Source: an uncultured Ruminococcus sp. (GTDB lineage: Bacteria; Bacillota; Clostridia; Oscillospirales; Acutalibacteraceae). Taken from it: a stretch of 50,369 nucleotides of DNA. A model generated the notes under the pieces. That model saw nothing but the letters and a program-made list of their open reading frames with translations. It did not search any database and was not told the origin of the DNA. A program made the position numbers and the translations under genes. The stretch lies in the NCBI GenBank assembly GCA_902773635.1, contig CACYFH010000005.1, forward strand, positions 1 through 50,369. The letters run 5' to 3'. Shown here piece after piece: positions 103-47,668 of the stretch; positions within the stretch are counted from its first letter, which is position 1, and every line of letters begins with the position of its first letter.

Positions 103-2706
103 ATGGCGGAGTTATCTCCGATGATGAAGCAATATTTCCAGATCAAGGAGGAGAACAAGGACAGCATCCTGTTCTTCCGTCTCGGCGATTTCTACGAGAT
201 GTTCTATGATGATGCGAAGCTCGCTTCCAAGGAACTGGAGCTGACCCTCACCGGCCGCGACTGCGGTCAGGAGGAGCGCGCTCCGATGTGCGGCGTGCCG
301 TTCCACTCCGCTGAGAGCTATATCGCGCGGCTGGTCGCGAAGGGCTACAAGGTCGCGATCTGTGAGCAGACGGAGGATCCCGCCAAGGCGAAGGGGCTCG
401 TCCGCCGCGATATCATCCGCGTCATCACGCCCGGTACGGTCATGGAATCCTCCATGCTCGACGAGAGCGAGAACAACTATATCTGCTCCATGTTCGCGGA
501 TAAAAACGCCGTGGGCATTGCCTTCTGCGATATCTCCACGGGTCAGCTTTTTGTCTCTCACTTCAAGACGGATCACAGCTTCTCTCAGCTCAAGGATCTT
601 CTGACCTCTTATTCGCCGAAGGAGCTGCTGATCGCCGGCAGGCTCGCACAGAACAAGGTGCTCCACCTGTTCATTAAGGAGAAGCTGACGAACGCTTCCG
701 TTTCTCACCCTGACGAGAGCCTCTGCGGTCTGATCGACTGCACCGCGATCGTCAACAGTCATTTTGATGAAAAGAACACCGCGAAGATCGCGGATATGCC
801 GGAGGTCAATATCGCCCTCGGCGTGCTGATGTCCTATTTGAAGGACACCCAGAAAACCGGTCTCGAACGCATCGACACCATCGAGTTCTTTGCGGAAGAC
901 CAGTATATGAAGCTCGATTACAACACCCGCCGCAATCTGGAGCTGACCAAGACCATGATCGCGAAGGAGAAGAAGCACTCGCTCCTTTGGGTGCTGGACA
1001 AGACCCGCACCGCGATGGGAAAGCGCATGATCAAGTACTGGGTCGAGCACCCGCTCCTCAGCATCACCGCGATCCTCAAACGCCAGAACGCGGTGGAGGA
1101 GCTGGTCGGCGACACGGTGAACCGTTTGGAGCTGACCGCGAACCTCACGGGTATCTTTGATATCGAGCGCCTGATGACGAAGATCGTCTACGGCTCGGCG
1201 AATGCGCGCGAGTTGCGCTCGCTGTGTCAGGCATTCACCAATTTACCGACGCTGAAAGCGACGCTGGAGCCGTTCAAGTCGAAGCTGCTCCACGCGCTGT
1301 ATCAGGATCTCGACCCGCTCGACGATATGCGCGAGTTGATCGACACGGCGATCGTCGAGGACCCGCCGTTCTCCGTGCGTGAGGGCGGGTTGATCAAGGA
1401 GGGCTACTCCGCTCCCCTTGACGAGATCAAGCACGATATGACCGACTCGACCTCCTTGCTCGCTCGCATTGAAGCCGAGCAGAAGGAGCTGACCGGCATC
1501 CCGAAGCTCAAGGTCGGCTACAACCGCGTGTTCGGTTATTATATCGAGGTCACCAATTCGTATAAAAATCTGGTGCCCGAGACCTATATCAGAAAGCAGA
1601 CGCTCACCAACTGTGAGCGATACATCACCCCGGAGTTGAAGGAGCTGGAGAGCCGTATCCTCGGCGCGAAGGATCGCTCCGTCGCGATCGAGTACGAGCT
1701 GTTCAACGATGTGCGCGAGCAGGTCGCCTTGAACCTCGACCGCATCGAGCGCACCGCGAAGGCGATCGCCGTGCTGGATACGCTCGTCTCTCTCGCGAAT
1801 GTCGCGGCGGACAACCGCTACACCCGACCCGATATCACCCAAAGCTCCGTGATTCGTCTCAAGGACAGCCGCCATCCGGTGGTCGAGGCGCTGTTGAGTA
1901 ACGCGATGTTTGTGCCGAACGACGTTCTGCTCGACAACATGGAGAACCGCATCGCGATCATCACCGGCCCTAATATGGCGGGTAAATCCACCTATATGCG
2001 GCAGGTCGCGCTGATCGTGCTGATGGCGCAGATGGGCTCGTTCGTGCCTGCTTCGTACGCTCAGATCGGGCTTGTGGACGCGATCTTCACCCGTGTGGGT
2101 GCGTCCGACGACCTTGCGAGCGGTCAATCGACCTTCATGGTGGAGATGAACGAGGTCGCGAACATCGTCTCCCACGCGACGTCTAAGAGCCTGCTGATCC
2201 TCGACGAGATCGGCAGAGGTACCTCTACATATGACGGTATGAGCATTGCCCGCGCAGTGCTGGAATATGTCGCCGATAAGAAAAAGCTCGGCGCGAGAGC
2301 GCTTTTCGCGACCCATTACCATGAGCTGACCGTGATGGAAGAGCTGCTCGACGGCGTGAAGAATTACAATATCGCTGTCAAGAAGCGCGGCGACGAGATC
2401 ACCTTCCTGAGAAGGATCGTCCCCGGCGGCGCGGACGAGAGCTACGGCGTCGAAGTCGCAAAGCTCGCGGGTCTGCCCGACAGCATCATTGAAAGAGCAA
2501 AAGAGATATTAGCGGAGCTGAATGAACATGCCCCGCAGGAGCATACGGAAAGAACAGCTCCCGCAGAGGAGCCGGGCTTACAGCTCAGCCTCATGCCCTC
2601 ATCCGACGGCATGATCGAGCAGAAGCTCAGAAGCGTAGACGTCAACACCCTGACGCCCATAGAGGCGATGAACATCCTCTATGAGTTGAAGGGAATGGTA
2701 GAATAA
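103..2706 (+). CDS. mutS: DNA mismatch repair protein MutS
   Basis: MutS recognises base mismatches and small loops and recruits MutL. The 867-residue length is normal for the family. The mismatch-binding F-x-E motif is visible in GDFYEMF (Phe30, Glu32). The C-terminal ABC-type ATPase has Walker A GPNMAGKST near residue 621, followed by the LILDEIGRGTS Walker B/signature block and FATHYHEL. The ATG is preceded by AGAGGTGAG. It heads a repair pair with mutL. The last two codons and the stop lie inside a seven-base repeat tract (2701-2735), so its 3' end may have been reshaped by that tract. Confidence 0.97.
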   Translation: MAELSPMMKQYFQIKEENKDSILFFRLGDFYEMFYDDAKLASKELELTLTGRDCGQEERAPMCGVPFHSAESYIARLVAKGYKVAICEQTEDPAKAKGLVRRDIIRVITPGTVMESSMLDESENNYICSMFADKNAVGIAFCDISTGQLFVSHFKTDHSFSQLKDLLTSYSPKELLIAGRLAQNKVLHLFIKEKLTNASVSHPDESLCGLIDCTAIVNSHFDEKNTAKIADMPEVNIALGVLMSYLKDTQKTGLERIDTIEFFAEDQYMKLDYNTRRNLELTKTMIAKEKKHSLLWVLDKTRTAMGKRMIKYWVEHPLLSITAILKRQNAVEELVGDTVNRLELTANLTGIFDIERLMTKIVYGSANARELRSLCQAFTNLPTLKATLEPFKSKLLHALYQDLDPLDDMRELIDTAIVEDPPFSVREGGLIKEGYSAPLDEIKHDMTDSTSLLARIEAEQKELTGIPKLKVGYNRVFGYYIEVTNSYKNLVPETYIRKQTLTNCERYITPELKELESRILGAKDRSVAIEYELFNDVREQVALNLDRIERTAKAIAVLDTLVSLANVAADNRYTRPDITQSSVIRLKDSRHPVVEALLSNAMFVPNDVLLDNMENRIAIITGPNMAGKSTYMRQVALIVLMAQMGSFVPASYAQIGLVDAIFTRVGASDDLASGQSTFMVEMNEVANIVSHATSKSLLILDEIGRGTSTYDGMSIARAVLEYVADKKKLGARALFATHYHELTVMEELLDGVKNYNIAVKKRGDEITFLRRIVPGGADESYGVEVAKLAGLPDSIIERAKEILAELNEHAPQEHTERTAPAEEPGLQLSLMPSSDGMIEQKLRSVDVNTLTPIEAMNILYELKGMVE

Positions 2707-2735
2707 AGAATACGGAATAAAGAATAGTGAATAAT
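2701..2735 (+). repeat. Heptad tract H1-left, GAATAAN type
   Basis: Five consecutive seven-base units with consensus GAATANN start one codon before the mutS stop codon and include it (TAA at 2704-2706). TAA or TAG triplets occur at offsets 3, 17, 24 and 31 of the tract, so all three reading frames are closed. The reverse-complement tract is at 2794-2821. Confidence 0.85.
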
Positions 2736-2793
2736 TGCGGTTTCTCGTTTCACTCGATCAATTTGATTCGGGTGAGGGCAGAGCCCTGTCTTC

Positions 2794-2821
2794 ATTATTC
2801 ATTCTTCAATCTTCGGTATTC
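2794..2821 (-). repeat. Heptad tract H1-right, inverted
   Basis: Four units of the reverse complement of GAATAAN (ATTATTC, ATTCTTC, AATCTTC, GGTATTC) end just upstream of the mutL ribosome site. With 2701-2735 they bracket a 58-bp spacer that holds a small hairpin (AGGGC/GCCCT). The two arms could pair in RNA or as a cruciform. Confidence 0.8.
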
Positions 2822-2847
2822 ATTACGAAATGAGAGGAGGAACGGCA

Positions 2848-4830: not shown

Positions 4831-5771
4831 CGGAGAAGATACCTGTCGTCGCCGTCGTCGGGCCTACCGCCTCGGGTAAGACCGCGCTCGCCGTCGCGCT
4901 GGCAAAGGCGCTGGACGGTGAGGTCGTCTCCGCGGATTCCATGCAGATCTACCGCCATATGGATATCGCGACCGCAAAGCCCAGTGAGGAAGAAAAGCAG
5001 GGGATACCCCATCACCTGATGGACTTCCTCGAGCCGACGGAGAGCTTCTCTGTCGCGCGCTACTGTGAGCTGGCGCATGCGGCGATCGGGGATATCCGCA
5101 GGAGAGGGAAGCTCCCGATCATCGCGGGCGGTACGGGCTTGTATGTCGACGCGCTCCTCGGCAATATGGCGTTTGAGGAGCAGGAGACCGATCCCGCTCT
5201 GCGTGAGGAGCTCCATGCTGAGCTGGAGGAAAAGGGACTCGACGCGCTTCTTGACGAGATCCGCTCCTTCGACCCCGCATCCTATGAGCGGTTGAAGGAA
5301 GGGCGCAACCCGCGCCGGATCGTGCGCTGTATCGAGGTCTACCGCTCCACCGGCATGACCCAGACGGCGCTCAACGAGAAGCAGATCACGCCGGAATCCC
5401 CCTACAAAGCCGTGAAATTCGGCTTGAAGGCGGCTGACCGCGAATATCTCTATGAGCGCATCAACCGCCGCGTCGATCTCATGATGGAGCAAGGATTGCT
5501 CGAAGAAACGCGGGCGTTCTATGCCGCAGACTTCGGCGATACCGCCGCTGCCGCGATCGGCTACAAGGAGCTTCTGCCGTATCTCAGCGGCGAAGCTGAG
5601 CTGGATGCTTGTCTCGAGAACCTCAAGCGCTCCACCCGCCGCTACGCGAAGCGTCAGCTGACGTGGTTCAGCCGTGACGAGAGCATCCGCTGGTACCTGA
5701 TCGACGAAGAGAGCTTTGACGAGATATGCGACAATGCTGTTTCACATATAAAGGAAGTATTTTATGAGTAA
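4827..5771 (+). CDS. miaA: tRNA dimethylallyltransferase MiaA
   Basis: MiaA adds the dimethylallyl group from DMAPP to N6 of A37 in tRNAs reading UNN codons. The P-loop GPTASGKT is at residues 12-19, followed by DSMQIYRHMDIATAKPS, which matches the substrate-contact region of the family, and GGTGLY near 105. The length of 314 residues is standard. It overlaps mutL by ATGA and the next gene by eight bases, which indicates translational coupling in one transcript. mutL-miaA adjacency is common in bacteria. Confidence 0.96.
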   Translation: MTEKIPVVAVVGPTASGKTALAVALAKALDGEVVSADSMQIYRHMDIATAKPSEEEKQGIPHHLMDFLEPTESFSVARYCELAHAAIGDIRRRGKLPIIAGGTGLYVDALLGNMAFEEQETDPALREELHAELEEKGLDALLDEIRSFDPASYERLKEGRNPRRIVRCIEVYRSTGMTQTALNEKQITPESPYKAVKFGLKAADREYLYERINRRVDLMMEQGLLEETRAFYAADFGDTAAAAIGYKELLPYLSGEAELDACLENLKRSTRRYAKRQLTWFSRDESIRWYLIDEESFDEICDNAVSHIKEVFYE

Positions 5772-20770: not shown

Positions 20771-22048
20771 ATGGCTTTAAAATCATCTGCCAAGACTGAG
20801 GCAAACACCTACGAGGTAGAAGTTACCGTAGACGGCGAGACCTTTATGGTAGCCGTTGCGAAGGTATTTAAGAAGGAAAGCAAGAAGATCACTGTTCCCG
20901 GTTTCCGCAAGGGCAAGGCGCCCCGCGCGATCATCGAGAAGATGTACGGTAAGGACGTATTCTATGAGGATGCGATGCAGGAGTGCTATCCTGAGGCGCT
21001 GGACGAGGCGTGCAAGGAAGCTGACCTGAATGTCATCACCGTCACCGGTCTCGAGGCGACCGAGGTCTCTGAGGACGGCTTCACCTTCAAGGCGACCGTG
21101 ATCGTAGAGCCTGAGATCGAGATCAAGGATTACAAGGGTATCGAGGTAGAGAAGCTCTCCACCGAGGTTACCGAGGAAATGATCGACGAGGAGATCAACT
21201 CTGTGCGCGAGCGCAACAGCCGCATGGTCACCGTTGAGGACAGAGCCGCTCAGAACGGCGACACCGTTGTCATCGACTTTGAGGGCTTCTGCGACGGCGA
21301 GGCTTTCGACGGCGGCAAGGCTGAGGAATACAACCTCGAGCTCGGCTCCGGCAACTTCATCCCCGGCTTTGAGGAGCAGATCGTCGGCCACAACACCGGC
21401 GACGAGTTCACCATCGACGTCAAGTTCCCCGAGGAGTATCAGGCGGAGAACCTCAAGGGCAAGGACGCGCAGTTCAAGATCAAGCTCCATGAGATCAAGG
21501 TCAAGGAGCTGCCCGAGGTAGACGACGATTTCGTCAAGGACGTTTCCGAGAAGGATACCGTCGCTGAGTACCGCGAGGAGCTCAAGAAGACCGTCGCAAA
21601 GCGTCTGGAGTCCGCTTCCGAGCGCGACCTCGACGACAAGCTGACCAACGCTGTCATCGAGAAGGTCGAGGGCGAGATCCCCTCCCAGATGATCGACAGA
21701 GAGGCTCAGAACATGATCCAGGAGATGGATATGCGTCTGCGCCAGCAGGGTATGGACTTCGACACCTATATGAAGTACACCGGCATGAATGCGGACTCCG
21801 TTCTGGAGATGTATAAGCCCGAGGCCGAGCGCAGAGTCAAGATGCGTCTGGCTCTCGAGAAGATCGCTGAGCTGGAGAAGATCGAGCCGACTGAGGAGGA
21901 TATCGAGGCTGAGTACAACAGAATGGCTGAGTCTTACAAGATGGAAGCCGACAAGGTCAAGGAGATCATCCCCGCAGAGAGCCTGAAAGAGGATCTCGGC
22001 GTTCAGCTCGCGATGAAGCTCGTCAAGGATAACGCTGTTATCAAGTGA
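20771..22048 (+). CDS. tig: Trigger factor
   Basis: Ribosome-associated chaperone with peptidyl-prolyl isomerase activity. The N-terminal ribosome-binding domain contains VPGFRKGKAPRAIIEKMYG; the FKBP-type domain (about 155-245) contains GDTVVIDFEGFCDG and FIPGFEEQIVG; the C-terminal arms are helical and charged. Length is 425 residues. AGGAGG precedes the ATG. The 5' region is AT-rich with TATA-like hexamers, but I cannot assign a single promoter. The stop codon lies inside a seven-base repeat tract (22044-22071). Confidence 0.97.
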   Translation: MALKSSAKTEANTYEVEVTVDGETFMVAVAKVFKKESKKITVPGFRKGKAPRAIIEKMYGKDVFYEDAMQECYPEALDEACKEADLNVITVTGLEATEVSEDGFTFKATVIVEPEIEIKDYKGIEVEKLSTEVTEEMIDEEINSVRERNSRMVTVEDRAAQNGDTVVIDFEGFCDGEAFDGGKAEEYNLELGSGNFIPGFEEQIVGHNTGDEFTIDVKFPEEYQAENLKGKDAQFKIKLHEIKVKELPEVDDDFVKDVSEKDTVAEYREELKKTVAKRLESASERDLDDKLTNAVIEKVEGEIPSQMIDREAQNMIQEMDMRLRQQGMDFDTYMKYTGMNADSVLEMYKPEAERRVKMRLALEKIAELEKIEPTEEDIEAEYNRMAESYKMEADKVKEIIPAESLKEDLGVQLAMKLVKDNAVIK

Positions 22049-22071
22049 TCAGTGGTCAGTGACCAGTGACC
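22044..22071 (+). repeat. Heptad tract H2, AGTGACC type
   Basis: Four seven-base units with consensus AGTGNNC begin two bases before the tig stop codon and contain it. The stop triplet TGA recurs in two reading frames. No inverted partner is visible before clpP; a short ACAGGCG/CGCCTGT hairpin follows at about 22079-22099. Confidence 0.8.
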
Positions 22072-22158
22072 GGTTATAACAGGCGACGACCGCCTGTTGC
22101 TGAAGAATAATATTCAACCGTTTGAAACATACTATAATACTGCGAAAGGATGGTTGTT

Positions 22159-24241: not shown

Positions 24242-26647
24242 ATGGATACCGTAAAACCCAGTGTAAATCTACCGGTTCTGCCGCTTCGGGGCGTGGTCAT
24301 GTTCCCGAAGATGATGCTGAACTTTGACGTGAACCGAAAGCGCTCCAAGAAGGCGCTGGATCTCGCCATGAACGGCGACCAGCTGATCTTCCTCACGGCG
24401 CAGATGGATCCGTCCCAGAACGAGCCGACCGCCGACGACGTCTACAAGGTCGGCACCGTCTGCCGCGTCAAGCAGGTCGTCCGCGAGGATCACGGCTCGA
24501 CCCGCGTGGTGGTCGAGGGTCTGTGGCGCGGCGCGATCGTCGAGACCGAGCCGAACGATGGCTGTCTTTATGCCGCGATCGAGCCCTACGGCGAGGCGCG
24601 CTCCCATGCGCTGACCACCCGCGATATCGCCCTCATGCGCTCTCTGAAAGCGACCTTTGAGCGCTATATGGAACTGACACCGAAGCTCCCTGCCGATATT
24701 CTCTTCAAGATCGGCATGTCCAATGAGCCGGGCGATCTGGCGGACTATGTCGCATCCAACGTGATGCTCGACGCGGAGATCAAGCAGATCATCCTGGAAA
24801 CGGTCAACCTTTCCGACCGCCTGGAGGTGCTGATCGACGCGATGCAGAATGAGATCTACATCCTCACCGTCGAGCAGGATATCATGGACAAGGCGAAATC
24901 CCGCATCGACCAGAGCCAGCGCGACTATTATCTGCGCGAGCAGATGAACGTCATCCGCGACGAGCTCGGCGACAACGGCGACTTCAACGATATCGACGAG
25001 CTGCGCAAGAAGATCGCCGATATGAAGCTCCCCGAGGACGTGGAGAAGGCGCTGAATAAGGAGTGCTCCCGCTTGGAGCGTCTGCCTGTCGGGACGAACG
25101 AATCCAGCGTGATCGAGACCTACATAGACACCGTGCTTGACCTGCCGTGGAACACGATGACCGAGGAGAATATCGACCTCGACGCCGTGCGCGAGCAGCT
25201 CGACCGCGATCACTACGGCTTGGATAAGGTCAAGAAGCATATCATCGAGCAACTGGCTGTCAGGAAGCTCAGCGATAAGGCGAAGGGGCAGATTCTCTGT
25301 CTCGTCGGCCCTCCCGGTGTGGGCAAGACCTCCATCGCGACCTCGATCGGCGACGCGATCGGCAGAAAGAGCCAGCGTGTGGCGCTCGGCGGCGTGCGTG
25401 ATGAAGCGGAGATCCGCGGTCACAGACGCACCTACATCGCCTCCATGCCCGGACGCATCATCAACGCGATCCGCAAGTGCGGTGCGCGCAACCCGCTCCT
25501 GATCCTCGACGAGGTGGATAAGCTCTCCGCCGACTACAAGGGCGACCCGTCCTCGGCGCTGTTGGAGGTGCTCGACAGCGAGCAGAATTACGCCTTCGTC
25601 GATCATTATATCGACCTGCCGTTCGACCTCTCCGACGTTATGTTCATCACCACGGCGAACGACGCTGACCTGATCCCTGCGCCCCTGCGCGACCGTATGG
25701 ACGTGATCGAGCTGCCGTCTTATACCCGCGTGGAGAAGTTCAATATCGCGAAAAAGCACCTGCTCCCGAAGCAGATGGCGCAGTGCGGCATCAAGCGCAA
25801 GAACTTCCGCATGAGCGACAAGGCGATCTACGCCGTGATCGACTTCTATACCCGCGAGGCGGGCGTGCGTAACCTCGAACGCGAGCTGAAAGCGATCCTC
25901 CGCAAGGCGGCTGTCGCGATCCTCGCCGATCCCGAGACCGTCGTGAAGGTCACGGACAAGAACATCGACGCCTATCTGGGCGTGAAGAAATATCTCGATG
26001 ATATCGCCGCGAAGAAGGACGAGGTCGGCATGGTGAACGGTCTCGCTTGGACTGCTGTCGGCGGCACGCTTCTGCCGCTGGAATGTGTCGTCATGCACGG
26101 CACCGGAAAGCTGGAGCTGACCGGCTCTCTCGGCGACGTGATGCAGGAGAGCGCCAAGGCGGCGATCACCGCGATCCGTACCCGCGCGGAGAAATATCAT
26201 ATCGACCCCGATTTCTATAAAAACAAGGATATCCACATCCACGCGCTGGAGGGCGCGATCCCGAAGGATGGACCCTCCGCGGGCGTGACGATGGCGACCG
26301 CGCTGTACTCTGCGTTGACCGGTCAGGCTGTCCGCGCCGACGTCGCGATGACCGGCGAGATCAGTATTTCCGGACGCGTCCTGCCCATCGGCGGCTTGAA
26401 GGAGAAGAGTATGGCGGCGTATAAGGCAGGCGTGAAGCACGTCATCATCCCCAAGGAGAATGAGCGCGACCTCGCGGACTTTGACCCGGAGATCAGGGAG
26501 AGCATCACCTATCATCCCGTTTCCACCATCGACGAGGTGCTCAAGCTCGCCATCGCCGAGGAGAAGAAGCCCGCCGCAAAGCCGAAGAACAGCAGGAAGA
26601 AAGCGGCTAAAATAGTGAGGAGTGAGGAATTAGGAGTGAGGAGTTAA
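24242..26647 (+). CDS. lon: ATP-dependent Lon protease
   Basis: A homohexameric AAA+ protease of 801 residues. The N-terminal substrate domain starts LPVLPLRGVVMFP. The ATPase has Walker A GPPGVGKT near residue 355. The protease domain has the Ser/Lys dyad: Ser679 in PKDGPSAG and Lys720 in GGLKEK. After a Lys/Ala/Pro-rich tail, the final eleven codons and the stop (26612-26647) are read from a seven-base repeat tract and encode IVRSEELGVRS, which is not a Lon feature. The extra tail could act on stability but that is untested. AAAGGAG precedes the ATG. Confidence 0.97.
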   Translation: MDTVKPSVNLPVLPLRGVVMFPKMMLNFDVNRKRSKKALDLAMNGDQLIFLTAQMDPSQNEPTADDVYKVGTVCRVKQVVREDHGSTRVVVEGLWRGAIVETEPNDGCLYAAIEPYGEARSHALTTRDIALMRSLKATFERYMELTPKLPADILFKIGMSNEPGDLADYVASNVMLDAEIKQIILETVNLSDRLEVLIDAMQNEIYILTVEQDIMDKAKSRIDQSQRDYYLREQMNVIRDELGDNGDFNDIDELRKKIADMKLPEDVEKALNKECSRLERLPVGTNESSVIETYIDTVLDLPWNTMTEENIDLDAVREQLDRDHYGLDKVKKHIIEQLAVRKLSDKAKGQILCLVGPPGVGKTSIATSIGDAIGRKSQRVALGGVRDEAEIRGHRRTYIASMPGRIINAIRKCGARNPLLILDEVDKLSADYKGDPSSALLEVLDSEQNYAFVDHYIDLPFDLSDVMFITTANDADLIPAPLRDRMDVIELPSYTRVEKFNIAKKHLLPKQMAQCGIKRKNFRMSDKAIYAVIDFYTREAGVRNLERELKAILRKAAVAILADPETVVKVTDKNIDAYLGVKKYLDDIAAKKDEVGMVNGLAWTAVGGTLLPLECVVMHGTGKLELTGSLGDVMQESAKAAITAIRTRAEKYHIDPDFYKNKDIHIHALEGAIPKDGPSAGVTMATALYSALTGQAVRADVAMTGEISISGRVLPIGGLKEKSMAAYKAGVKHVIIPKENERDLADFDPEIRESITYHPVSTIDEVLKLAIAEEKKPAAKPKNSRKKAAKIVRSEELGVRS
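26613..26647 (+). repeat. Heptad tract H3, GAGTGAG/GAATTAG type, translated as the Lon C-terminus
   Basis: Five seven-base units lie exactly between 26613 and 26647. Their stop triplets cover all three frames; the Lon frame is the last to close, at the final base of the tract. A degenerate inverted partner (CTCATAA, TTCCAAA) is at 26662-26675. Confidence 0.85.
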
Positions 26648-32198: not shown

Positions 32199-33534
32199 CC
32201 TGCCGACCATACCGACCTTCATCACCGTTCACCTCGGCGCGCCGAACGCGCCCGCTGAGAATGTGACGGTGGCTTTCTCCGATTACATCAAGAACGTCGC
32301 CTCGTCGGAAATATACCCGAACTGGCCGCAGGAGGCGCTCAGGGCGAATATCCTCGCCCAGATATCCTACACGCTCAACAAGGTCTACACCGAGTTCTAC
32401 CCCAGCCGCGGCTATGACTTCGACATCACCAACGATACTCGCTACGACCACGCCTACACCAAAAACGGCGAGGTTTTCGACACGATCGGATTGATTGTGG
32501 ATGAGATCTTCAATAACTACATCCGCCGCGAGGGTGCAGTCGAGCCGCTCGCCGCGAAGTTCTGTGACGGCGTGATCACGCTCTGTGACGGGCTTCTGCA
32601 ATGGGGTACGGTGGAGCTTGCAAATCAGGGCTACTCCGCGATGGATATTCTGCGCTACTACTACGGCAACGACATCGTGCTGGTGGAGAACGCGCCGCTC
32701 GCGGATAAAACGCAGTCTTATCCGGGCGTGGCGCTCTCACGCGGGTCGTTCGGCGACGACGTGCGCGTCATCAAGAATGAGCTGAACCGCATCCGCCGCA
32801 ATTATCCCGCTATCCCCGCGATCAACTCCGCGACCTCGGTCTTTGACGCGGAGACCGAGGCGGCTGTGCGCTCCTTTCAGCAGATCTTCAACCTGACGGC
32901 GGACGGCATCGTCGGCAAGGCGACATGGTACCGCATCAAGCAGGTGTTCGCCGCCGTGAAGCGGCTCTCTGAGCTGACCAGCGAGGGCTTGACCATCCCG
33001 GAGATCGAGCGCGTGTTCAGGACGGAGCTGAGCGTCGGCGATCAGGGGGTAGAGGTCGAGGCGGTGCAGTATTATCTTGCCTTCCTCGGGTACTTCTATC
33101 CGCAATTGCCGCCCATACCGATCAGCGGCTTCTTTGACGATGCGACCCGCGACGCGGTGTTCACCTTCCAGAGCGTGTACGGTCTGCCTGTCACGGGTGC
33201 GGTCGACCTCGCGACCTACTACACCATTGAGCGCGAGTACCGTCAGGCGGTCTCTCAGCTTCCGCAGAATTATCAGAGCGCGATCGGCGAGCCGTATCCC
33301 GGGCGCTTTCTGGTGGAGGGCGACAGGGGAGAGGAGGTGCGCGTGATCCAGGGGTATATCAACCGCATCGCCCGCACCGACCCCGCGATCCCGGAGATCA
33401 GCGTGGACGGCGTTTTCGGTCCACAGACAAAGGCGGCGGTCATCGCTATCCAGGCACAGCTAGGCGTTGAGCAGAACGGCGCGATCGGCCCTGTGGAATG
33501 GGTGGAGATCATTATGAGAGGAAGTCAGATATAG
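32191..33534 (+). CDS. SpoIID-like protein with three peptidoglycan-binding domains
   Basis: A 447-residue protein. Residues about 25-130 look like the SpoIID/LytB domain: YIKNVASSEIYPNWPQEALR, with the glutamate that is catalytic in SpoIID, then YDFDITNDTRYDHAY and AV-like repeats. Three PG_binding_1 domains follow (about 180-250, 285-350, 375-445), each with the G-D-x-V-x-x-(V/L)Q...F-x-F pattern ending in GPQTKAAV-type sequence. Unlike SpoIID it lacks a signal peptide or membrane anchor, so it may act in the mother cell during spore coat or cortex assembly (inference). Its stop codon is the first triplet of a heptad tract. Confidence 0.75.
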   Translation: MADLPTIPTFITVHLGAPNAPAENVTVAFSDYIKNVASSEIYPNWPQEALRANILAQISYTLNKVYTEFYPSRGYDFDITNDTRYDHAYTKNGEVFDTIGLIVDEIFNNYIRREGAVEPLAAKFCDGVITLCDGLLQWGTVELANQGYSAMDILRYYYGNDIVLVENAPLADKTQSYPGVALSRGSFGDDVRVIKNELNRIRRNYPAIPAINSATSVFDAETEAAVRSFQQIFNLTADGIVGKATWYRIKQVFAAVKRLSELTSEGLTIPEIERVFRTELSVGDQGVEVEAVQYYLAFLGYFYPQLPPIPISGFFDDATRDAVFTFQSVYGLPVTGAVDLATYYTIEREYRQAVSQLPQNYQSAIGEPYPGRFLVEGDRGEEVRVIQGYINRIARTDPAIPEISVDGVFGPQTKAAVIAIQAQLGVEQNGAIGPVEWVEIIMRGSQI

Positions 33535-33566
33535 TGAGGAGTTAGGAGTGAGGAGTTAGGAGTTAA
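33532..33566 (+). repeat. Heptad tract H4-left, GAGTTAG/GAGTGAG type
   Basis: Five seven-base units start exactly at the TAG stop of the SpoIID-like gene. Stop triplets occur in all three frames. The inverted partner is at 33678-33705. Confidence 0.85.
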
Positions 33567-33600
33567 GGGTGGGCTTTGCCCACACCCATTTGAAATAATG

Positions 33601-33639
33601 AAAACGCTTGCAAGCCGTTCGTTCGGTTGCAAGCGTTTT
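33601..33639. terminator. Bidirectional terminator inside the H4 element
   Basis: AAAACGCTTGCAA pairs with TTGCAAGCGTTTT across a 13-base loop. A smaller GTGGGC/GCCCAC hairpin precedes it. It serves the convergent genes on both sides. Confidence 0.8.
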
Positions 33640-33677
33640 GCTTATCATATCAATCAAAAGCCGTCAGGCTTTCCCAA

Positions 33678-33705
33678 AATTCCTAATTCCTAACTCCTAA
33701 CTAAC
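33678..33705 (-). repeat. Heptad tract H4-right, inverted
   Basis: Four units (AATTCCT twice, AACTCCT, AACTAAC) form the reverse complement of the H4-left type. Read on the minus strand, the tract starts two bases before the TAG stop of the convergent gene (33701-33703). Confidence 0.85.
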
Positions 33706-34261
33706 TCCACGGGTCGTCTGCCTTGGGGGTGCGGACGCCGACGAGGATCATCTGCTCGCTGAGGTACCATTTGCCCTCGCTCGGCTTTAATCTCAGCTTG
33801 ATCTGGCGGGGAGAATCCGCACCGCCGGAATTCAAGTGCAGGGTCGCCCAGCCCTCATTTCCGAAGGAATAGGGATTCGAGAAAACCGTCAGCGTGAAGG
33901 GCTGAGAGGGTGTATAGCTGTTCTCAGGGGTCGCGCCGGCGAAGTAGGAGAAGGGCACGAGCTTGGAGTCGCGGAAGCGGTCGTTGAGGAAGCTGATCTC
34001 ATACGCAGAGAGCGGCGCGGGACCTTTGAGGAAGTTGAGCATCTCCTGTCCGATCTCGGGAGCGGCGGCGTAGGCGCACAGGGCGCAGACGGTCAGCGCC
34101 GCGGTTTTGTAGGGCGTGTCGAGAGCGGCTTCGGGGAGCGCTTTCAGCTCGTCGAGGCTCTCGGGCAGTGCGTTGAACACAAAGGTGAAGGAGCCTTCCT
34201 CGACCTTTCCTGCCGAATGCTCAGCGGGAGCTGCCTGCTTCAAATTATCAAAAATACTCAT
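33701..34261 (-). CDS. Protein of unknown function (possible DUF6935-type)
   Basis: A 186-residue soluble protein. The N-terminal part (MSIFDNLKQAAPAE) is followed by a helical region and a C-terminal conserved-looking part with PFSYFAGATPENSYTPSQPF and LKPSEGKWYLSEQMILVGVRTPK. It has no signal peptide. I recall similar proteins in gut Clostridia as a domain of unknown function, but the family label is uncertain. The ATG at 34261 has GGAGG seven bases upstream; the open frame extends 22 codons further without a site. It has its own divergent promoter and ends in a heptad tract. Confidence 0.8.
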   Translation of the reverse strand: MSIFDNLKQAAPAEHSAGKVEEGSFTFVFNALPESLDELKALPEAALDTPYKTAALTVCALCAYAAAPEIGQEMLNFLKGPAPLSAYEISFLNDRFRDSKLVPFSYFAGATPENSYTPSQPFTLTVFSNPYSFGNEGWATLHLNSGGADSPRQIKLRLKPSEGKWYLSEQMILVGVRTPKADDPWS

Positions 34262-40560: not shown

Positions 40561-40578
40561 CTGCATGGTACAAAACAC

Positions 40579-40607: not shown

Positions 40608-40643
40608 ATATTTGATTCTGACAACATTTAAGGAGGAAGATTG

Positions 40644-41867
40644 TTGGGAGTATATGAAGAACTGGTAGCTCGCGGTCTGATCGCGCAGGTTACCGACGAA
40701 AAAGAAATCAGAGAACTGGTGAACAGCGGCAAGGCGGTGTTCTACATCGGCTTCGACCCGACCGCCGACAGCCTGCATGTAGGTCACTTCATGGCGCTGT
40801 GCCTGATGAAGCGTCTGCAGTTAGCGGGCAATAAGCCGATCGCTCTCGTGGGCGGCGGCACCGGCATGATCGGCGACCCTTCGGGCAGAACCGATATGCG
40901 CCAGATGATGACCAAGGAGACCATCGAGCACAACTGCGAGTGCTTCAAGAAGCAGATGAGCAAGTTTATCGACTTCTCGGACGGCAAGGCGATGATGGTC
41001 AATAACGCCGACTGGCTCTTAGACCTCAACTATGTGGAGCTGCTCCGCGAGGTCGGCGCGTGCTTCTCCGTCAACAATATGCTGCGCGCCGAGTGCTACA
41101 AGCAGCGCATGGAGAAGGGCTTGTCCTTCCTCGAATTCAACTACATGATCATGCAGAGCTACGACTTCTACGCGCTGTACCAGAAGTACGGCTGTAATAT
41201 GCAGTTCGGCGGCGACGATCAGTGGAGCAACATGCTCGGCGGTACGGAGCTGATCCGCAGAAAGCTCGGCAAGGACGCTTACGCCATGACCATCAACCTG
41301 CTCTTGAACAGCGAGGGCAAGAAGATGGGCAAGACCCAGAAGGGCGCTGTCTGGCTCGACGCCAACAAGACCACTCCCTTCGAGTTCTACCAGTACTGGC
41401 GCAACGTCGACGACACGGACGTTATCAAGTGTTTGAAGATGCTGACCTTCCTGCCGCTCGACGAGATCGAGAAGATGGCGGCTTGGGAAGGCTCAGAGCT
41501 GAACAAGGCGAAGGAGATCCTTGCTTTCGAGCTGACCAAGATGATCCACGGCGAGGACGAGGCAAACAAAGCGCAGGAGGGCGCGAGAGCTCTCTTCGGC
41601 GGCGGCGCGAATACTGAGAACATGCCCACCACCGAGCTTAGTGACGACGATTTCACCGACGGCGGCATTACGATCCTCGATCTGCTGTTGAAATGCAAGC
41701 TCATCCCCTCAAAGGGCGAGGGCAAGCGCCTGATCCAGCAGGGCGGCGTCTCCGTCGACGACGAGAAGGTCACCGACATGTTCCACAAGGTGGAGAAGGC
41801 GGCGTTCGAGAAGGGTCACGTCATCATCAAGAAGGGCAAGAAGGTCTTTCATAAGGCGGTACTGTAA
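40644..41867 (+). CDS. tyrS: Tyrosyl-tRNA synthetase
   Basis: A class I synthetase of 407 residues. The HIGH-type motif is HVGHF near residue 45. The KMSKS-type loop is KMGKTQKG near 227, as in TyrRS. A C-terminal S4 RNA-binding domain (about 340-405) ends the protein. The TTG at 40644 is preferred over the adjacent TTG at 40641 because AGGAGG (40631-40636) is then seven bases away. The stop codon is inside the first unit of a heptad tract. Confidence 0.96.
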
Positions 41868-41898
41868 GTTAGGAGTGAGGAGTTAGGAGTAAGGAGTT
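41864..41898 (+). repeat. Heptad tract H5a, AGGAGTN type
   Basis: Five seven-base units include the tyrS stop codon (TAA 41865-41867) in the first unit. TAA, TGA and TAG triplets cover all three frames. A second tract of a different family follows after three bases. Confidence 0.85.
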
Positions 41899-41901
41899 TT
41901 G

Positions 41902-41943
41902 CTACCGCAAACTACCGACTGCCGGCTACCAACTGCCAACTAT
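41902..41943 (+). repeat. Heptad tract H5b, CTACCAA/CTGCCAA type
   Basis: Six seven-base units alternate CTAC and CTGC cores (for example CGACTGC, CGGCTAC, CAACTGC). The sequence is unrelated to H5a but has the same period. It ends 27 bases before mscL. Confidence 0.8.
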
Positions 41944-41970
41944 CAAAAATATTATCAAGGAGTGTAGAAA

Positions 41971-42447: not shown

Positions 42448-42459
42448 TCGGTCTACTTT

Positions 42460-42494
42460 AGTGATCAGTGGTTTTTTAGTGACCAGTGACTGGT
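42460..42494 (+). repeat. Heptad tract H6-left, AGTGACC type
   Basis: Five degenerate seven-base units (AGTGATC, AGTGGTT, TTTTAGT, GACCAGT, GACTGGT), 12 bases after the mscL stop. It is the same family as the tract after tig. The inverted partner is at 42589-42609. Confidence 0.75.
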
Positions 42495-42523
42495 TGCTTT
42501 CATGATAAGTGAATAAAATGGAT

Positions 42524-42556: not shown

Positions 42557-42588
42557 GAATTATATGGATTGTGATGCTACAGTAAACC

Positions 42589-42609
42589 GGTCACCAGTCA
42601 CCGGTCACT
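42589..42609 (-). repeat. Heptad tract H6-right, inverted
   Basis: Three units (GGTCACC, AGTCACC, GGTCACT). Read on the minus strand, it starts one base after the TAA stop of the alcohol dehydrogenase gene. Confidence 0.8.
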
Positions 42610-42610
42610 C

Positions 42611-43759: not shown

Positions 43760-43788
43760 AATTTACCTCCGTAAATATTATTACTTAT

Positions 43789-43817
43789 ATTGTAGTATTT
43801 TTAACAATCAAATGCAA
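43789..43817 (-). promoter_or_regulatory. Promoter of the fucO-like gene
   Basis: On the minus strand TTGCAT (43817-43812), 17-bp spacer, TACAAT (43794-43789). Confidence 0.7.
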
Positions 43818-43957
43818 TTGCTTTGTATAGAGAATTTTCAGAGAAAATTTCAGTAAAAAAGCCGAACGGCACGTGCATCGAAGTCTGTGATAAGTCGATT
43901 TTTGAGACTTTAGAACCGCAAAAGGAGATGGAGTGCAAAACAGATTAAAAAACCGAT

Positions 43958-43987
43958 GAAAAAAGCGGCACGCTAAGCGTACCGCTT
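43958..43987 (-). terminator. Terminator after the NlpC/P60 gene
   Basis: On the minus strand AAGCGGTACGC pairs with GCGTGCCGCTT (one mismatch), followed by a T-run. Confidence 0.8.
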
Positions 43988-44019
43988 CATCATACTAAGC
44001 TGCGTTAGTATTTATCAAG

Positions 44020-45594: not shown

Positions 45595-46002
45595 AAAAAC
45601 CTCCGTAAGTCCGTCCGACACCTAAATGACGCCATATATAGTATATAGAGTCGTCGGCGGACGCTGTATATGATGTTTTCAGATTAGTTTGGTAACAAAA
45701 CTGTCATTATTATATCAGAGAATTAATCCAAATTCAAGTATTTGAGGGAAATTATTGTGATAATGACAAGAGAATTAAGAATTTGTTCATAATTATATAC
45801 AAAATAGCCAAAAATAGGACAGGTTACAACCGGTTACAGCTTGTAACCTTTTATTTCTGAGGAGAAAAAAGAGCCATTCGGACAAGTTTCAACAATTCCC
45901 GACAGGAAAAATAAGCGGCTTTTTTTGCATATTTAGAATTAACTGTTACGCAAATGTTAACATTCTGCGGACAGGCTTTGAATAAATGGTTACAAAGGTA
46001 AT
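45595..46002. promoter_or_regulatory. AT-rich upstream region of the NlpC/P60 gene with GGTTACA repeats
   Basis: No gene is visible. GGTTACA occurs directly repeated at 45822-45828 and 45832-45838, inverted at 45842-45848, and again at 45989-45995. On the minus strand the repeats read TGTAACC, like half-sites of the WalR consensus TGTWAH, but the spacing is 10 bases instead of 11. A control site for the hydrolase gene is plausible. Confidence 0.4.
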
Positions 46003-46044
46003 GGAATGAGGAATTAGGAATGAGAAATTAGGAATTAGGAATTC
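46003..46044 (+). repeat. Heptad tract H7-left, GGAATTA type
   Basis: Six consecutive seven-base units of consensus GGAATKA. There is no gene end next to it: the preceding gene is on the other strand and starts 400 bases away. The inverted partner at 46134-46196 is longer. Confidence 0.85.
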
Positions 46045-46133
46045 AGGGAAACGCTTCGCGTTTTGGATTCCTATTGTTCAGAGCAAAACGTTTCCGTTCC
46101 TTCTATCAATCAGGTGCGGACAGCGTCCGCCAT

Positions 46134-46196
46134 TCATTCCTCATTCCTCATTCCTCATTCCTAATTCCTAACTCCTAACTCCTAACTCCTGACTCC
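46134..46196 (-). repeat. Heptad tract H7-right, inverted, nine units
   Basis: Nine consecutive units: TCATTCC four times, TAATTCC once, TAACTCC three times, TGACTCC once. It is the longest tract in the window and shows blocks of identical neighbours, the pattern expected from expansion by unit duplication. The 89-bp spacer holds AAACGC/GCGTTT and GCGGAC/GTCCGC hairpins. Confidence 0.9.
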
Positions 46197-46202
46197 CCTT
46201 AG

Positions 46203-46275
46203 CCCGCATGGATACTGGCTTCCTACTGAGAGTAGAGCGCGTTTCCACCCTCGGGATAGCGGCTCTCAGTGCGGG
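46203..46275 (+). ncRNA. Possible structured RNA upstream of degV
   Basis: CCCGC (46203-46207) pairs with GCGGG (46271-46275), and ACTGAGAG (46225-46232) pairs with CTCTCAGT (46263-46270), so the right arms are continuous and the left arms are separated by a 17-base bulge. The region shows no convincing ORF. It matches no RNA class I can name. Confidence 0.3.
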
Positions 46276-46321
46276 GAGAATCGGGAGCGCGGGAGGGTAG
46301 AGCGCAAAAGCGCTTTGTAGA

Positions 46322-46350
46322 TTGCACTTTTCTCCGCTTTCGCGTATGAT
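46322..46350 (+). promoter_or_regulatory. Promoter of degV
   Basis: TTGCAC (46322-46327), 17-bp spacer, TATGAT (46345-46350). Confidence 0.7.
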
Positions 46351-46392
46351 AGAAGTAATGAAAATTATGTAAACCTTTCCGGAGGAAATGAC

Positions 46393-47271
46393 ATGAGCTT
46401 TTCGATTCTGACAGACACCTCCGCCAATCTGCCCTCAGCCTACCTGCTGGAGCACGGCGTGAGCGTGATCCCCTATCACTATATCATCTGCGACAAGCAG
46501 TATTCCTGCCTCGACACCGAGGGCTTTGACGGAAAGAAGTTTTATAAGGCGATGCGTCTGGGTGCGGATATCTCGACCTCCGCGATCAACCCACAGAGCT
46601 ATGTGGACTTCTTCGAGAGCTTCCTCATGAGCGGCAACGATATCCTGTTTATCAGCATGTCGTCGGGCATCAGCTCGTCCTTCCGCTGTGCGCAGATGGC
46701 GAAGGAGGAGCTGCAGAGCAGATACCCCGACCGCATGATCTGTCTGGTCGATACGCTCGGCGCGTCTCTGGGCGAGGGAATCTTCGCGATGATGGCGGTC
46801 GAGTACCGCGATGCGGGCTATCCGCTCAAGAAGGTCTACCGCATGCTCGAGGAGAAGAAGGCGTGCATGTACCAGGTCTTTACCGTTGACGACCTCATGT
46901 ACTTGAAAAAGACGGGTCGCCTGACGGGTTCCGCCGCGATCATCGGCAATATGCTGCAGGTCAAGCCGCTCCTCAAAGGCAACGAGAACGGCGAGATCGT
47001 GAATTTCAGCAAGGTCATCGGGCGCAAGAAGGCGATCGCCAGCCTCGCCCAGCGCTACAATATGCTGGTTGATAAGCCTGAGGAGCAGGTCGTCGGCATT
47101 GCGCACGCCGATTGCGAGGACGACGCGAAGTACCTGATCGAGCTGTTGAATAAGAAGAAGCCGCCGAAGGAGATCCTGACGGTCATGTACGAGCCGGTCA
47201 CGGGCTCCCATGTCGGCCCCGGAACGCTCGCGCTGTTCTTCCTCGGAGACAGCAGGGTCAGATACCGATAA
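46393..47271 (+). CDS. DegV family fatty-acid-binding protein
   Basis: A 292-residue protein of the DegV/FakB family, which binds a fatty acid and, with FakA, presents it for phosphorylation. Family features are ILTDTSANLPS at the N-terminus, STSAINPQSY, SMSSGISSSFRCAQMA and a C-terminal GSHVGPGTLALFF that closes the lipid carboxylate site. GGAGGAA precedes the ATG. No fakA is nearby. It stands alone between its own promoter and a terminator. Confidence 0.9.
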   Translation: MSFSILTDTSANLPSAYLLEHGVSVIPYHYIICDKQYSCLDTEGFDGKKFYKAMRLGADISTSAINPQSYVDFFESFLMSGNDILFISMSSGISSSFRCAQMAKEELQSRYPDRMICLVDTLGASLGEGIFAMMAVEYRDAGYPLKKVYRMLEEKKACMYQVFTVDDLMYLKKTGRLTGSAAIIGNMLQVKPLLKGNENGEIVNFSKVIGRKKAIASLAQRYNMLVDKPEEQVVGIAHADCEDDAKYLIELLNKKKPPKEILTVMYEPVTGSHVGPGTLALFFLGDSRVRYR

Positions 47272-47284
47272 GCGGCACCTGATG

Positions 47285-47309
47285 GGGCGGGGTAGCTCCC
47301 GCCCTTTTT
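47285..47309 (+). terminator. Terminator after degV
   Basis: GGGCGGG/CCCGCCC stem with a six-base loop, then TTTTT. Confidence 0.85.
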
Positions 47310-47340
47310 GCTTATTTTTATTCGAATCCGCTGAAATCGC

Positions 47341-47369
47341 TTGACATTTCGCATGAACTGTGGTATATT
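47341..47369 (+). promoter_or_regulatory. Promoter of the tRNA-Ser pair
   Basis: TTGACA (47341-47346), 17-bp spacer, TATATT (47364-47369), the closest match to the sigma-A consensus in the window, 15 bases before the first tRNA. Confidence 0.85.
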
Positions 47370-47383
47370 ATTACTTGCTTTAT

Positions 47384-47472
47384 GGAGAGATGTCCGAGTG
47401 GTTTAAGGAGCTAGTCTTGAAAACTAGTGATCCCGCAAGGGACCAAGGGTTCGAATCCCTTTCTCTCCGCCA
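47384..47472 (+). tRNA. tRNA-Ser (anticodon UGA)
   Basis: Acceptor GGAGAGA pairs with TCTCTCC. The anticodon stem CTAGT/ACTAG carries the loop CTTGAAA, anticodon TGA. A long variable arm (TCCCGCAAGGGA) and the T-arm GGGTTCGAATCCC are present. CCA is encoded (47470-47472). Confidence 0.97.
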
Positions 47473-47504
47473 ACTGAATATAAAGTTATGAACTTTACAT
47501 ACAT

Positions 47505-47594
47505 GGAGGATTACTCAAGTGGTGAAGAGGCTCCCCTGCTAAGGGAGTAGGTCGCGAAAGCGGCGCGAGAGTTCGAATCTCTTGTCCTCCGCCA
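47505..47594 (+). tRNA. tRNA-Ser (anticodon GCU)
   Basis: Acceptor GGAGGA pairs with TCCTCC. The anticodon stem CTCCC/GGGAG carries the loop CTGCTAA, anticodon GCT. The long variable arm and the T-arm GAGTTCGAATCTC are present. CCA is encoded (47592-47594). It is probably cotranscribed with the preceding tRNA-Ser. Confidence 0.97.
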
Positions 47595-47631
47595 AAAGAA
47601 ATCCTGTCACGCAAGTGGCAGGATTTCTTTT
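47595..47631 (+). terminator. Terminator after the tRNA-Ser pair
   Basis: AAAGAAATCCTGTCAC and GTGGCAGGATTTCTTTT form a long stem with a GCAA loop and a T-run. Confidence 0.9.
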
Positions 47632-47633
47632 GT

Positions 47634-47668
47634 ATTATTCATTATTCAGTCTTAAGTTTTCAGTATTC
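47634..47668 (-). repeat. Heptad tract H8, inverted GAATAAT type, single
   Basis: Five units (ATTATTC twice, AGTCTTA, AGTTTTC, AGTATTC), the reverse complement of the H1 family. No left partner is visible; the tract starts directly after the tRNA terminator. Confidence 0.8.

What the first reader, a model, noticed from the sequence alone, without database searches (positions are those of the whole stretch)
2701..47668. Seven-base tandem tracts of several unrelated sequences, one architecture, clustered at gene ends
Eight intergenic sites carry 3-9 consecutive 7-bp units: 2701-2735/2794-2821, 22044-22071, 26613-26647, 33532-33566/33678-33705, 41864-41943, 42460-42494/42589-42609, 46003-46044/46134-46196 and 47634-47668. 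Unit sequences differ (GAATAAN, AGTGACC, GAGTTAG/GAGTGAG, GGAATTA, CTACCAA), but the period is always 7. Four or five sites have an inverted tract closing the element. This suggests a shared generating process or selection on period and position rather than descent from one sequence. Heptanucleotide repeats are known in filamentous cyanobacteria; I know no mechanism linking them to stop codons in Clostridia.
Basis: partly seen in the sequence, partly recalled or inferred. Interest (0 to 1): 0.78.

Follow-up and report, generated by a model that had tools for sequence, protein, structure and literature searches.

The report
Inverted seven-base repeats at gene ends
Small pieces of non-coding DNA carrying runs of a seven-letter repeat, often as mirror-image pairs, have been inserted between the genes of this Clostridia-type bacterium, often right at a stop codon, and the same repeat grammar turns up in other genera and in a phage contig, so something not yet identified may read or write it.

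Summary
Period 7 is the dominant tandem period in the window and in 450 kb of its genome (57 tracts; Markov control 1). Half the tracts (32 of 63) use one degenerate unit, GGARTKA: five positions nearly fixed, two varying almost only A/G and T/G, with exactly four units as a sharp mode. In 17 of 39 tract-bearing spacers two tracts are present, mostly as inverted arms around a core; one 90-bp core has 26 matches in this genome. At two sites all five same-genus genomes have shorter spacers, so these are insertions. Tracts reach or overlap 18 of 40 gene 3' ends and 0 of 38 5' ends. One site exists in two alleles with the core inverted and the arms changed. Only 24 of 398 family genomes match the arm pattern, in bursts; mixed four-unit arms also occur in a phage contig. 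Best reading: non-coding foldback (MITE-like) insertion elements with heptad-array ends, moved by an unidentified factor (0.45). No target duplication was found; RAYT, reverse transcriptase and DUF559 are not required. Published Xanthomonas and Nostoc heptamer repeats share several hallmarks: a new variant of a known kind.

The parts
2699..2735 (+). left arm, GAATAAT-type units, overlapping the stop codon of the gene ending at 2706 (mutS by my reading)
   Evidence: insertion against five relatives
2736..2785 (.). core between the arms with hairpin modules
2786..2825 (-). right inverted arm of the same element
22042..22077 (+). single tract AGTGATC/AGTGGTC/AGTGACC; the stop codon TGA (22046-22048) lies inside it
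   Evidence: spacer 101 bp against 44-60 in five of five relatives
26613..26647 (+). single GGARTKA tract read as the C-terminus of the ORF 24242-26647 (lon by my reading)
33531..33572 (+). left GGARTKA arm overlapping the stop of the + gene
33573..33672 (.). spacer with a GGGTGGGC hairpin and an inverted repeat that looks like a native terminator (no hit in the terminator scan)
33673..33706 (-). right inverted arm overlapping the stop of the - gene (convergent pair)
41863..41901 (+). GGARTKA tract directly at the stop of the gene ending at 41867 (tyrosyl-tRNA synthetase by my reading)
41905..41946 (-). degenerate CTACCAA-type tract completing the insert before the next gene (mscL by my reading)
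42460..42500 (+). weak AGTGATC/AGTGACC tract, interrupted, below my detection threshold
42580..42610 (-). short inverted ACCGGTC-type tract at the stop of the opposing gene
46001..46047 (+). left GGARTKA arm of the core-1 element
46045..46134 (.). core 1, 90 bp, 26 matches in the genome
46128..46200 (-). right inverted GGARTKA arm of the core-1 element
47633..47672 (-). single tract ATTCATT/ATTCAGT type, downstream of a tRNA-Ser

Best explanation
The tracts are the ends, or what is left of the ends, of small non-coding foldback (MITE-like) insertion elements. The clearest form is (ARTKAGG)4, then a hairpin-rich core, then the inverted copy (CCTMAYT)4, mostly 130-210 bp. Elements have been inserted between genes, preferentially at the stop codon, where the arm can supply a new stop. 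Shown: insertion against empty sites in relatives; dispersal of one core; inverted arms of matching unit family; a degenerate but fixed grammar; a sharp mode of four units; tracts on stop codons; arms that differ between copies with nearly identical cores; one site present in both core orientations. Inferred: each heptad is a binding site for one subunit of a trans-acting protein (transposase or recombinase), so that four sites make one working end; the arms change length by slippage and exchange by recombination, which also inverts the core; single tracts are decayed, fused or solo ends; patchy bursts follow gain and loss of that protein. The protein is not identified. On recount I lowered this from 0.50 to 0.45, because two tracts are seen in 17 of 39 spacers, not in most.
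For: Empty sites: mutS-mutL spacer 141 bp against 12-42 bp in 5 of 5 same-genus genomes; site 22048, 101 against 44-60 in 5 of 5; TyrRS-MscL, 107 on the measure used against 19-33 in the 3 of 5 same-genus loci read and 22-89 in 7 named relatives; of 80 named TyrRS loci only L007 has a tract at the strict threshold, and not in this spacer. Dispersal: core 1 has 26 matches in G000, 24 of them 85 bases or longer, two of them the alleles of one site; all 8 hits in the 450-kb sample have an arm on each side. Arms: 33 two-armed elements (450 kb plus loci fetched by core 1), 27 with both arms GGARTKA, 6 with neither, 0 mixed; in the 450 kb alone 13 and 4 of 17; inverted score 24.6 against 5.1 direct; share of AGT over AAT units correlates between arms, r = 0.73, p = 0.0002. 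Grammar: 127 inner units of the 32 GGARTKA tracts in the 450 kb, position 4 = A 73/G 54, position 6 = T 86/G 40/A 1, others 123-127 of 127; loosening the admission from 85 to 75% adds no tract. Four units: 20 of 35 runs in the 450 kb, 50 of 72 in other family genomes, 78 of 191 in viral-labelled contigs. Inverted allele: flanks 49/49 and 86/88 identical, core 87/90 when reversed, arms different. Bursts: G000 167 placements against 5,0,0,0,0 in its genus draw; 24 of 398 in the family.
Against: 22 of 39 tract-bearing spacers show only one tract. No target-site duplication of 2 bp or more above shuffles in 22 own and 16 other elements. No mobilising enzyme found: Y1_Tnp is missing from 2, RVT_1 from 7 and DUF559 from 3 of the 11 rich genomes. 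Core 1 is not shared with other genomes, unlike an ordinary MITE family. The longest B/C-type tracts (up to 26 units) have no core, and AGTGRTY runs show no peak at four, so slippage alone may make some tracts. In other genera 4 of 16 paired tracts mix arm families, partly through nesting or chance neighbours. Whole-arm similarity within GGARTKA elements is not above shuffled pairs (p = 0.36). The inverted allele rests on two contig ends of one MAG.
Confidence: 0.45

Rival explanations
1. Plain replication slippage: heptamers are a favoured slippage length (a view of Mrazek and colleagues as quoted in PMC4679880), and tracts grow anywhere selection tolerates them, mostly behind stop codons.
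For: Arm length differs by whole units between copies. 22 of 39 spacers show one tract only. B/C-type tracts run to 16-26 units. No enzyme found.
Against: A sharp mode at four units, two positions that vary almost only A/G and T/G, inverted matched arms, a dispersed core, and spacers shorter in relatives. Genus neighbours have 0-5 placements.
Confidence: 0.24
2. Selection for nucleic-acid structure: four GG runs per arm allow a two-layer G-quadruplex, or the paired arms form a long mRNA hairpin that protects or ends transcripts; the elements persist because of this. This follows the proposal of Rehm et al. for GGGNATC repeats.
For: The four-unit mode is seen in the GG-containing family and was also reported for Xanthomonas and Nostoc (abstract of PMC4692102). 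Strong folds: z -6.1, -4.4 and -11.0. Placement behind stop codons.
Against: GAATAAT- and AATKCGT-type arms have no GG runs, and AATKCGT runs, though only 8, also have four as the commonest count (3 of 8). Folding of the arms on each other competes with quadruplexes. Structure does not explain dispersal of core 1 or lineage bursts.
Confidence: 0.15
3. A REP/RAYT-type system: a Y1 tyrosine transposase mobilises the elements as single strands, which would explain the lack of target duplication.
For: G000 encodes a RAYT-like protein (NF047646, 70.8 bits, below its cut-off of 80). Y1_Tnp of any kind is in 9 of 11 rich and 7 of 15 zero-hit genomes (G121 only a fragment). RAYT matches are in 13 of 24 family genomes with the arm pattern and 93 of 374 without (p = 0.003), though the query alignment was built from RAYTs mostly of arm-bearing genomes, which favours this result. 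A tract lies about 60 bp behind one RAYT gene of G153 (L224).
Against: Among the 11 genomes with 10 or more placements only 5 match the RAYT alignment against 101 of 387 others (p = 0.17); G080 (99% complete) and G356 (96%) have no Y1_Tnp match. RAYT loci in G289, G162 and G382 carry GTAG-type palindromes and the G000 RAYT gene itself contains one; these are not heptads. Tracts were seen in 4 of 11 Y1 loci fetched, all but one farther from the gene.
Confidence: 0.08
4. Template-directed addition of heptads to both 3' ends of a break, as a telomerase-like enzyme would do, followed by joining; this would give inverted arms with the G-rich strand inward at both sides and the same unit family on both arms.
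For: Arm orientation and matching, constant degenerate positions as from one template, no target duplication.
Against: RVT_1 absent from 7 of the 11 richest genomes (G000 is only 75% complete). Core 1 is a copied element, not a random join.
Confidence: 0.05

Closest known systems
GGGAATC / GGGGAYT heptamer repeats of Xanthomonas and Nostoc (Rehm et al. 2015, PMC4692102; abstract, discussion and passages read)
   Same: 7-base units, intergenic, spread over the genome, preference for four units, placement at or over stop codons on the sense strand, inverted pairs at 70 and 75 sites, repeat number varying between relatives.
   Different: Different unit; here several unit families, the main one with two degenerate positions. 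Here a dispersed core, insertion against empty sites and an inverted allele. There 90% of repeats lay between the same genes in both species; here five same-genus species have 0-5 pattern placements against 167.
TAACTGA repeats of Beggiatoaceae, Cyanobacteria and Bacteroidetes (MacGregor 2015, PMC4679880; abstract and sections 3, 8, 10, 24 read)
   Same: Intergenic heptamer arrays, patchy among relatives, mixed with other heptamers in Microcystis, 7-nt length steps.
   Different: In that genome mostly just upstream of start codons, related heptamers rarely repeated, 169 direct sets and one indirect repeat. Here inverted pairs are common and tracts sit on stop codons.
MITEs and eukaryotic foldback elements (Galileo, Tm1: listing only; FB of Drosophila and its tandem-repeat ends recalled)
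   Same: Non-coding, inverted ends, variable middle; foldback ends made of tandem short repeats of variable number.
   Different: No target duplication found, no transposase known, 7-base period and stop-codon preference.
REP/RAYT and BIME systems
   Same: Short intergenic palindromic elements, high copy in some genomes.
   Different: No GTAG-type tail seen on these elements; the RAYT alignment matches only 5 of 11 rich genomes.

Membership tests
Heptamer repeats of the Xanthomonas/Nostoc kind | tandem 7-base units, intergenic | tested here: met
Heptamer repeats of the Xanthomonas/Nostoc kind | preference for four units | tested here: met
   20 of 35, 50 of 72, 78 of 191 for ARTKAGG; not for AGTGRTY (0 of 10); RGTTGCT 3 of 10
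Heptamer repeats of the Xanthomonas/Nostoc kind | unit GGGNATC | tested here: not met
   units are GGARTKA and others
Heptamer repeats of the Xanthomonas/Nostoc kind | G-quadruplex formation in vitro | not testable with these tools
   needs CD spectroscopy
MITE | inverted ends enclosing a non-coding middle, many copies | tested here: met
MITE | target-site duplication | tested here: not met
   38 elements, none above shuffles at 2 bp or more
MITE | ends matching a full-length transposon with a transposase | tested here: inconclusive
   one DUF559-bearing foldback in G356; G000 is 75% complete
REP/RAYT | palindrome with GTAG (or CGTC) tag | tested here: not met
   by eye in the element sequences; GTAG palindromes seen at RAYT genes
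REP/RAYT | RAYT gene present in genomes with the repeats | tested here: not met
   5 of 11 rich genomes and 13 of 24 with any pattern match
Simple slippage microsatellite | monotonic fall of copy number, variants at random positions | tested here: not met
   for the ARTKAGG family only
Known RNA family (Rfam 15) | covariance model hit at gathering score | tested here: not met
   only two tRNAs in the window

The most novel reading that the evidence does not exclude
A class of mobile DNA not yet described, shared by Clostridia, other bacteria and phages, whose ends are four tandem heptads of a degenerate code (ARTKAGG) read by an unknown enzyme that inserts without target duplication at or beside stop codons, lets unrelated cores be carried between the same ends, and flips them; the heptamer repeats of Xanthomonas, Nostoc and Beggiatoaceae would be other codes of the same class.
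Probability: 0.28. Interest if true: 0.82.

Novelty: new variant of a known kind. Interest (0 to 1): 0.6.

Why it matters
Heptamer repeats have been reported piecemeal in distant bacteria, and the two papers read here offer no settled mechanism. Here they are tied to small elements with matched inverted ends, a fixed degenerate code, a preferred count of four, shorter spacers in relatives and an inverted allele. That turns a statistical oddity into something with ends, an insertion site and a predicted reader protein. The bursts in single species next to sister species with few or none make a gene-content comparison for that protein directly feasible.

Tried and rejected
Candidate drivers: Y1_Tnp and a RAYT alignment, RVT_1, DUF559; none is present in all rich genomes. 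DUF559: 8 of 11 rich and 5 of 15 zero-hit genomes (6 with a fragment in G190), p = 0.11 for 5. 16 of 29 DUF559 loci hold an inverted repeat of 14 bp or more with distant arms, but only one (L281, the same place as L241) was seen with GGARTKA arms on both sides.

Universal 'ARTK in every heptad': only moderately supported outside the A family: own genome 6 of 31 against 1.9 by column permutation (the largest of 200 permutations also reached 6), other genera 9 of 14 against 2.4 (maximum 7). Dropped as a general rule.

Alternation of unit types along a tract: no convincing signal; largest z 2.8 at lag 2. K-state does not correlate between arms (r = -0.28), and whole-arm similarity within GGARTKA elements is no higher in own pairs than in shuffled pairs (p = 0.36); only the R-state share is.

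Match of tracts or an element to the plasmid and phage collections by BLAST: no match; these queries are repetitive and may be masked. Phylum draw: outside the family only 4 genomes have hits, 1-2 each, no more than the reversed control gives, so I first took the grammar to be family-bound; the viral-labelled contigs then showed otherwise.

Rows dropped: 7 of 63 own tracts were not between two called genes and are not in the stop-codon count. The gene caller is my own and simple; in other loci I used open frames of 100 codons or more. Terminator scan at 33400-33900 found none.
Full report
What was checked. The window is contig 5 of a 68-contig, 1.66-Mb, 75%-complete genome. By its TyrRS its nearest named relatives are records called uncultured Clostridiales and uncultured Ruminococcus. 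Gene names such as mutS, mutL, lon, TyrRS and mscL are my reading of the sequence and come from no call. Period 7 dominates in the window and in 450 kb of the genome: 57 tracts against 1 in a Markov-3 control, with none at period 8.

Anatomy. At a slightly looser threshold the 450 kb hold 63 tracts. 39 spacers between called genes have tracts; 17 have two, 22 have one. In the 450 kb 17 pairs qualify as two-armed elements, 128-376 bp long: 13 with both arms of the GGARTKA family, 4 with neither, none mixed. With loci fetched by core 1 added, 33 elements: 27, 6 and none (two may be alleles of one site). The arms match as inverted repeats (mean score 24.6), not as direct repeats (5.1). Inside the GGARTKA elements the share of AGT over AAT units agrees between the two arms (r = 0.73, p = 0.0002), while the T/G position does not. 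RNA folds of three window elements pair the arms (z -6.1, -4.4, -11.0).

The unit grammar. 32 of 63 tracts in the 450 kb fit GGARTKA; admission at 85% or 75% fit gives the same 32. In their 127 inner units positions 1, 2, 3, 5 and 7 are fixed in 123-127; position 4 is A 73, G 54; position 6 is T 86, G 40, A 1. With further own loci: 61 tracts, 239 units, A 149/G 90 and T 167/G 70/A 1/C 1. In 38 tracts of other genomes, which were fetched with the R/K pattern and so partly selected for it, 108 units show A 45/G 63 and T 56/G 52. Run length of ARTKAGG, one mismatch allowed inside a run, peaks at four: 20 of 35 runs in the 450 kb, which was not chosen for tracts; 50 of 72 in other family genomes; 78 of 191 in viral-labelled contigs. 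The last two sets were fetched with a pattern needing three units. Read in the GGARTKA phase the peak is broader, at three and four. Ten AGTGRTY runs have no run of four; of ten RGTTGCT runs three have four.

Cores. The 90-bp core of the 46001-46200 element has 26 matches in this genome, 24 of 85 bases or more. Of 33 other genomes searched, 32 have none and one has a single 24-bp match. In the 450-kb sample 8 of 8 hits, two of them partial, have an arm on each side. Exact units within 130 bp of a core range from 0 to 10 per side, most often four, while cores are 75-100% identical. One partial copy (L205) keeps the core hairpin but has arms of another unit family on both sides. Other genera have the same arm grammar around cores that look different by eye. 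In G356 a roughly 1.1-kb foldback has nested layers of arms and carries a DUF559 gene.

Insertion. At mutS-mutL the spacer is 141 bp here and 12-42 bp in all five same-genus genomes, with the protein C-terminus conserved to the last few codons. At 22048 it is 101 bp against 44-60 bp in all five, and the stop codon lies inside the tract. At lon the reading frame runs into the tract and ends there; the relatives' C-terminal tails do not align with it. Between TyrRS and MscL the distance is 107 bp on the measure used, against 19-33 bp in the three same-genus loci that the script read and 22-89 bp in seven named relatives. Of the 80 named TyrRS loci only L007 has a tract at the strict threshold.

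Position. Of 40 gene 3' ends facing an element, 18 are reached or overlapped by a tract; uniform placement in the same spacers gives 6.7 on average and at most 11 in 5000 trials. Of 38 gene 5' ends, none is, against 0.8 expected. Tract edges are uncertain by a few bases. Seven of 63 tracts were outside this count because they were not between two called genes. In viral-labelled contigs, with open frames for genes, 53 of 86 arms that face a 3' end lie within 20 bp of it or overlap it, 25 overlapping; of 32 facing a 5' end, none overlaps and 8 lie within 20 bp; 14 of these 118 arms lie more than 40 bp inside an open frame. In other family genomes the bias is weaker (9 overlapping and 7 within 20 bp of 39; 0 and 4 of 20). 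In some convergent pairs both stop codons carry an arm and what look like native terminators lie between (the scan found none at 33400-33900).

An inverted allele. The end of contig 48 and the start of contig 22 cover the same spacer. Flanks agree at 49 of 49 and 86 of 88 bases; the core agrees at 87 of 90 bases only when one copy is reversed (61 of 109 columns when not); the arms differ in unit number and sequence. This looks like two strains in the MAG with the element in opposite orientation. It is one case; 89 contig ends were compared.

No target duplication. In 22 own and 16 other elements with exact ends, direct repeats of 2 bp or more at the borders are no more common than in shuffled pairs; one base is shared in 10 of 22 against 5.3 expected, within the range of the shuffles.

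Distribution. With three units as the pattern, 24 of 398 genomes of the family draw have a match; G000 has 167 placements (overlapping ones counted), its five genus neighbours 5, 0, 0, 0, 0; G289 has 98 while its genus mates drawn have 0; G121 has 89. In a draw of 398 genomes of the phylum 5 have a match, the own genome and four others with one or two each, comparable to the reversed control. In IMG/VR contigs the pattern finds 100 stretches. In all 237 viral-labelled loci fetched, 73 of 117 GGARTKA tracts mix units at one or both free positions, against 16 of 155 in three control grammars. Ten proteins from five of these loci were scanned: L385 has a phage portal protein and a D5 primase domain, L399 a terminase, so at least two look like true phages. 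L385 has an inverted pair of mixed four-unit arms; L399 has many arms but only the unit AGTTAGG.

The missing enzyme. Y1_Tnp of any kind is in 9 of 11 rich and 7 of 15 zero-hit genomes. RAYT-like proteins match in 13 of 24 family genomes with the arm pattern and 93 of 374 without, but only in 5 of the 11 rich ones; the query was built mostly from arm-bearing genomes. RVT_1 is absent from 7 of 11 rich genomes, DUF559 from 3. None is required in all.

Relation to what is known. Rehm et al. (PMC4692102; abstract, discussion and passages read) describe GGGNATC heptamers in Xanthomonas and Nostoc with a preference for four units, overlap with stop codons on the sense strand and 70-75 inverted pairs in Xanthomonas, and find no function. 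MacGregor (PMC4679880; abstract and sections 3, 8, 10, 24 read) describes TAACTGA arrays in Beggiatoaceae, Cyanobacteria and Bacteroidetes and considers that a binding protein may be the mobile element. A survey of prokaryotic satellites mentions a (GATAGRA)n heptamer in Chloroflexus (PMC6749651, passages). General searches on heptamer repeats and searches with Faecalibacterium or Ruminococcus among the terms listed no paper on them in Clostridia, judged by titles and abstract starts; the library lacks most subscription journals.

Verdict. What is shown is a class of small insertions with heptad arms of a fixed grammar, often in matched inverted pairs, four units by preference in the main family, sitting on stop codons and spreading in bursts. 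What is inferred is that a trans-acting protein reads the heptads. The architecture works like a foldback or MITE element, but membership in the MITE class fails on target duplication and is open on the transposase.

Noticed in passing
L399 (IMG/VR contig, 14.2 kb): A contig with a terminase gene carries 22 period-7 tracts in 14 kb, of several unit families including GATTTTG; some lie inside open frames.
   Followed up: partly
L216:2379-2903 (own genome, contig 13): A RAYT-like gene directly follows another gene's stop codon and holds an inverted GTAGGGCGGGGGC-type palindrome inside its own coding sequence.
   Followed up: partly
L148:8062-8191, L132:14118-14245 and elsewhere; window 1-80: A separate roughly 130-bp inverted-repeat element (TCATTCCGAGGGAGC...GCAATGACA) has many matches in the 450 kb, most without heptad arms nearby; the window's first 79 bases match the start of contig 12 and partly match this element.
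   Followed up: partly
L241:850-2200 (G356 contig 30): Onion-like foldback of about 1.1 kb with nested arm families AATKCGT and GGARTKA and a DUF559 gene in the middle; a possible autonomous relative.
   Followed up: partly
L261-L290: 16 of 29 DUF559 loci hold an inverted repeat of 14 bp or more with arms over 350 bp apart, mostly without heptads.
   Followed up: no
L007:3843-3876: A named relative has an AAGAATG-type heptamer tract about where its mscL gene should end, while its TyrRS-MscL spacer has none.
   Followed up: no
L147:9537-9914: A DUF559 gene starts overlapping the stop codon of the gene before it (racemase-like by my reading), the same kind of site as the heptad elements.
   Followed up: no
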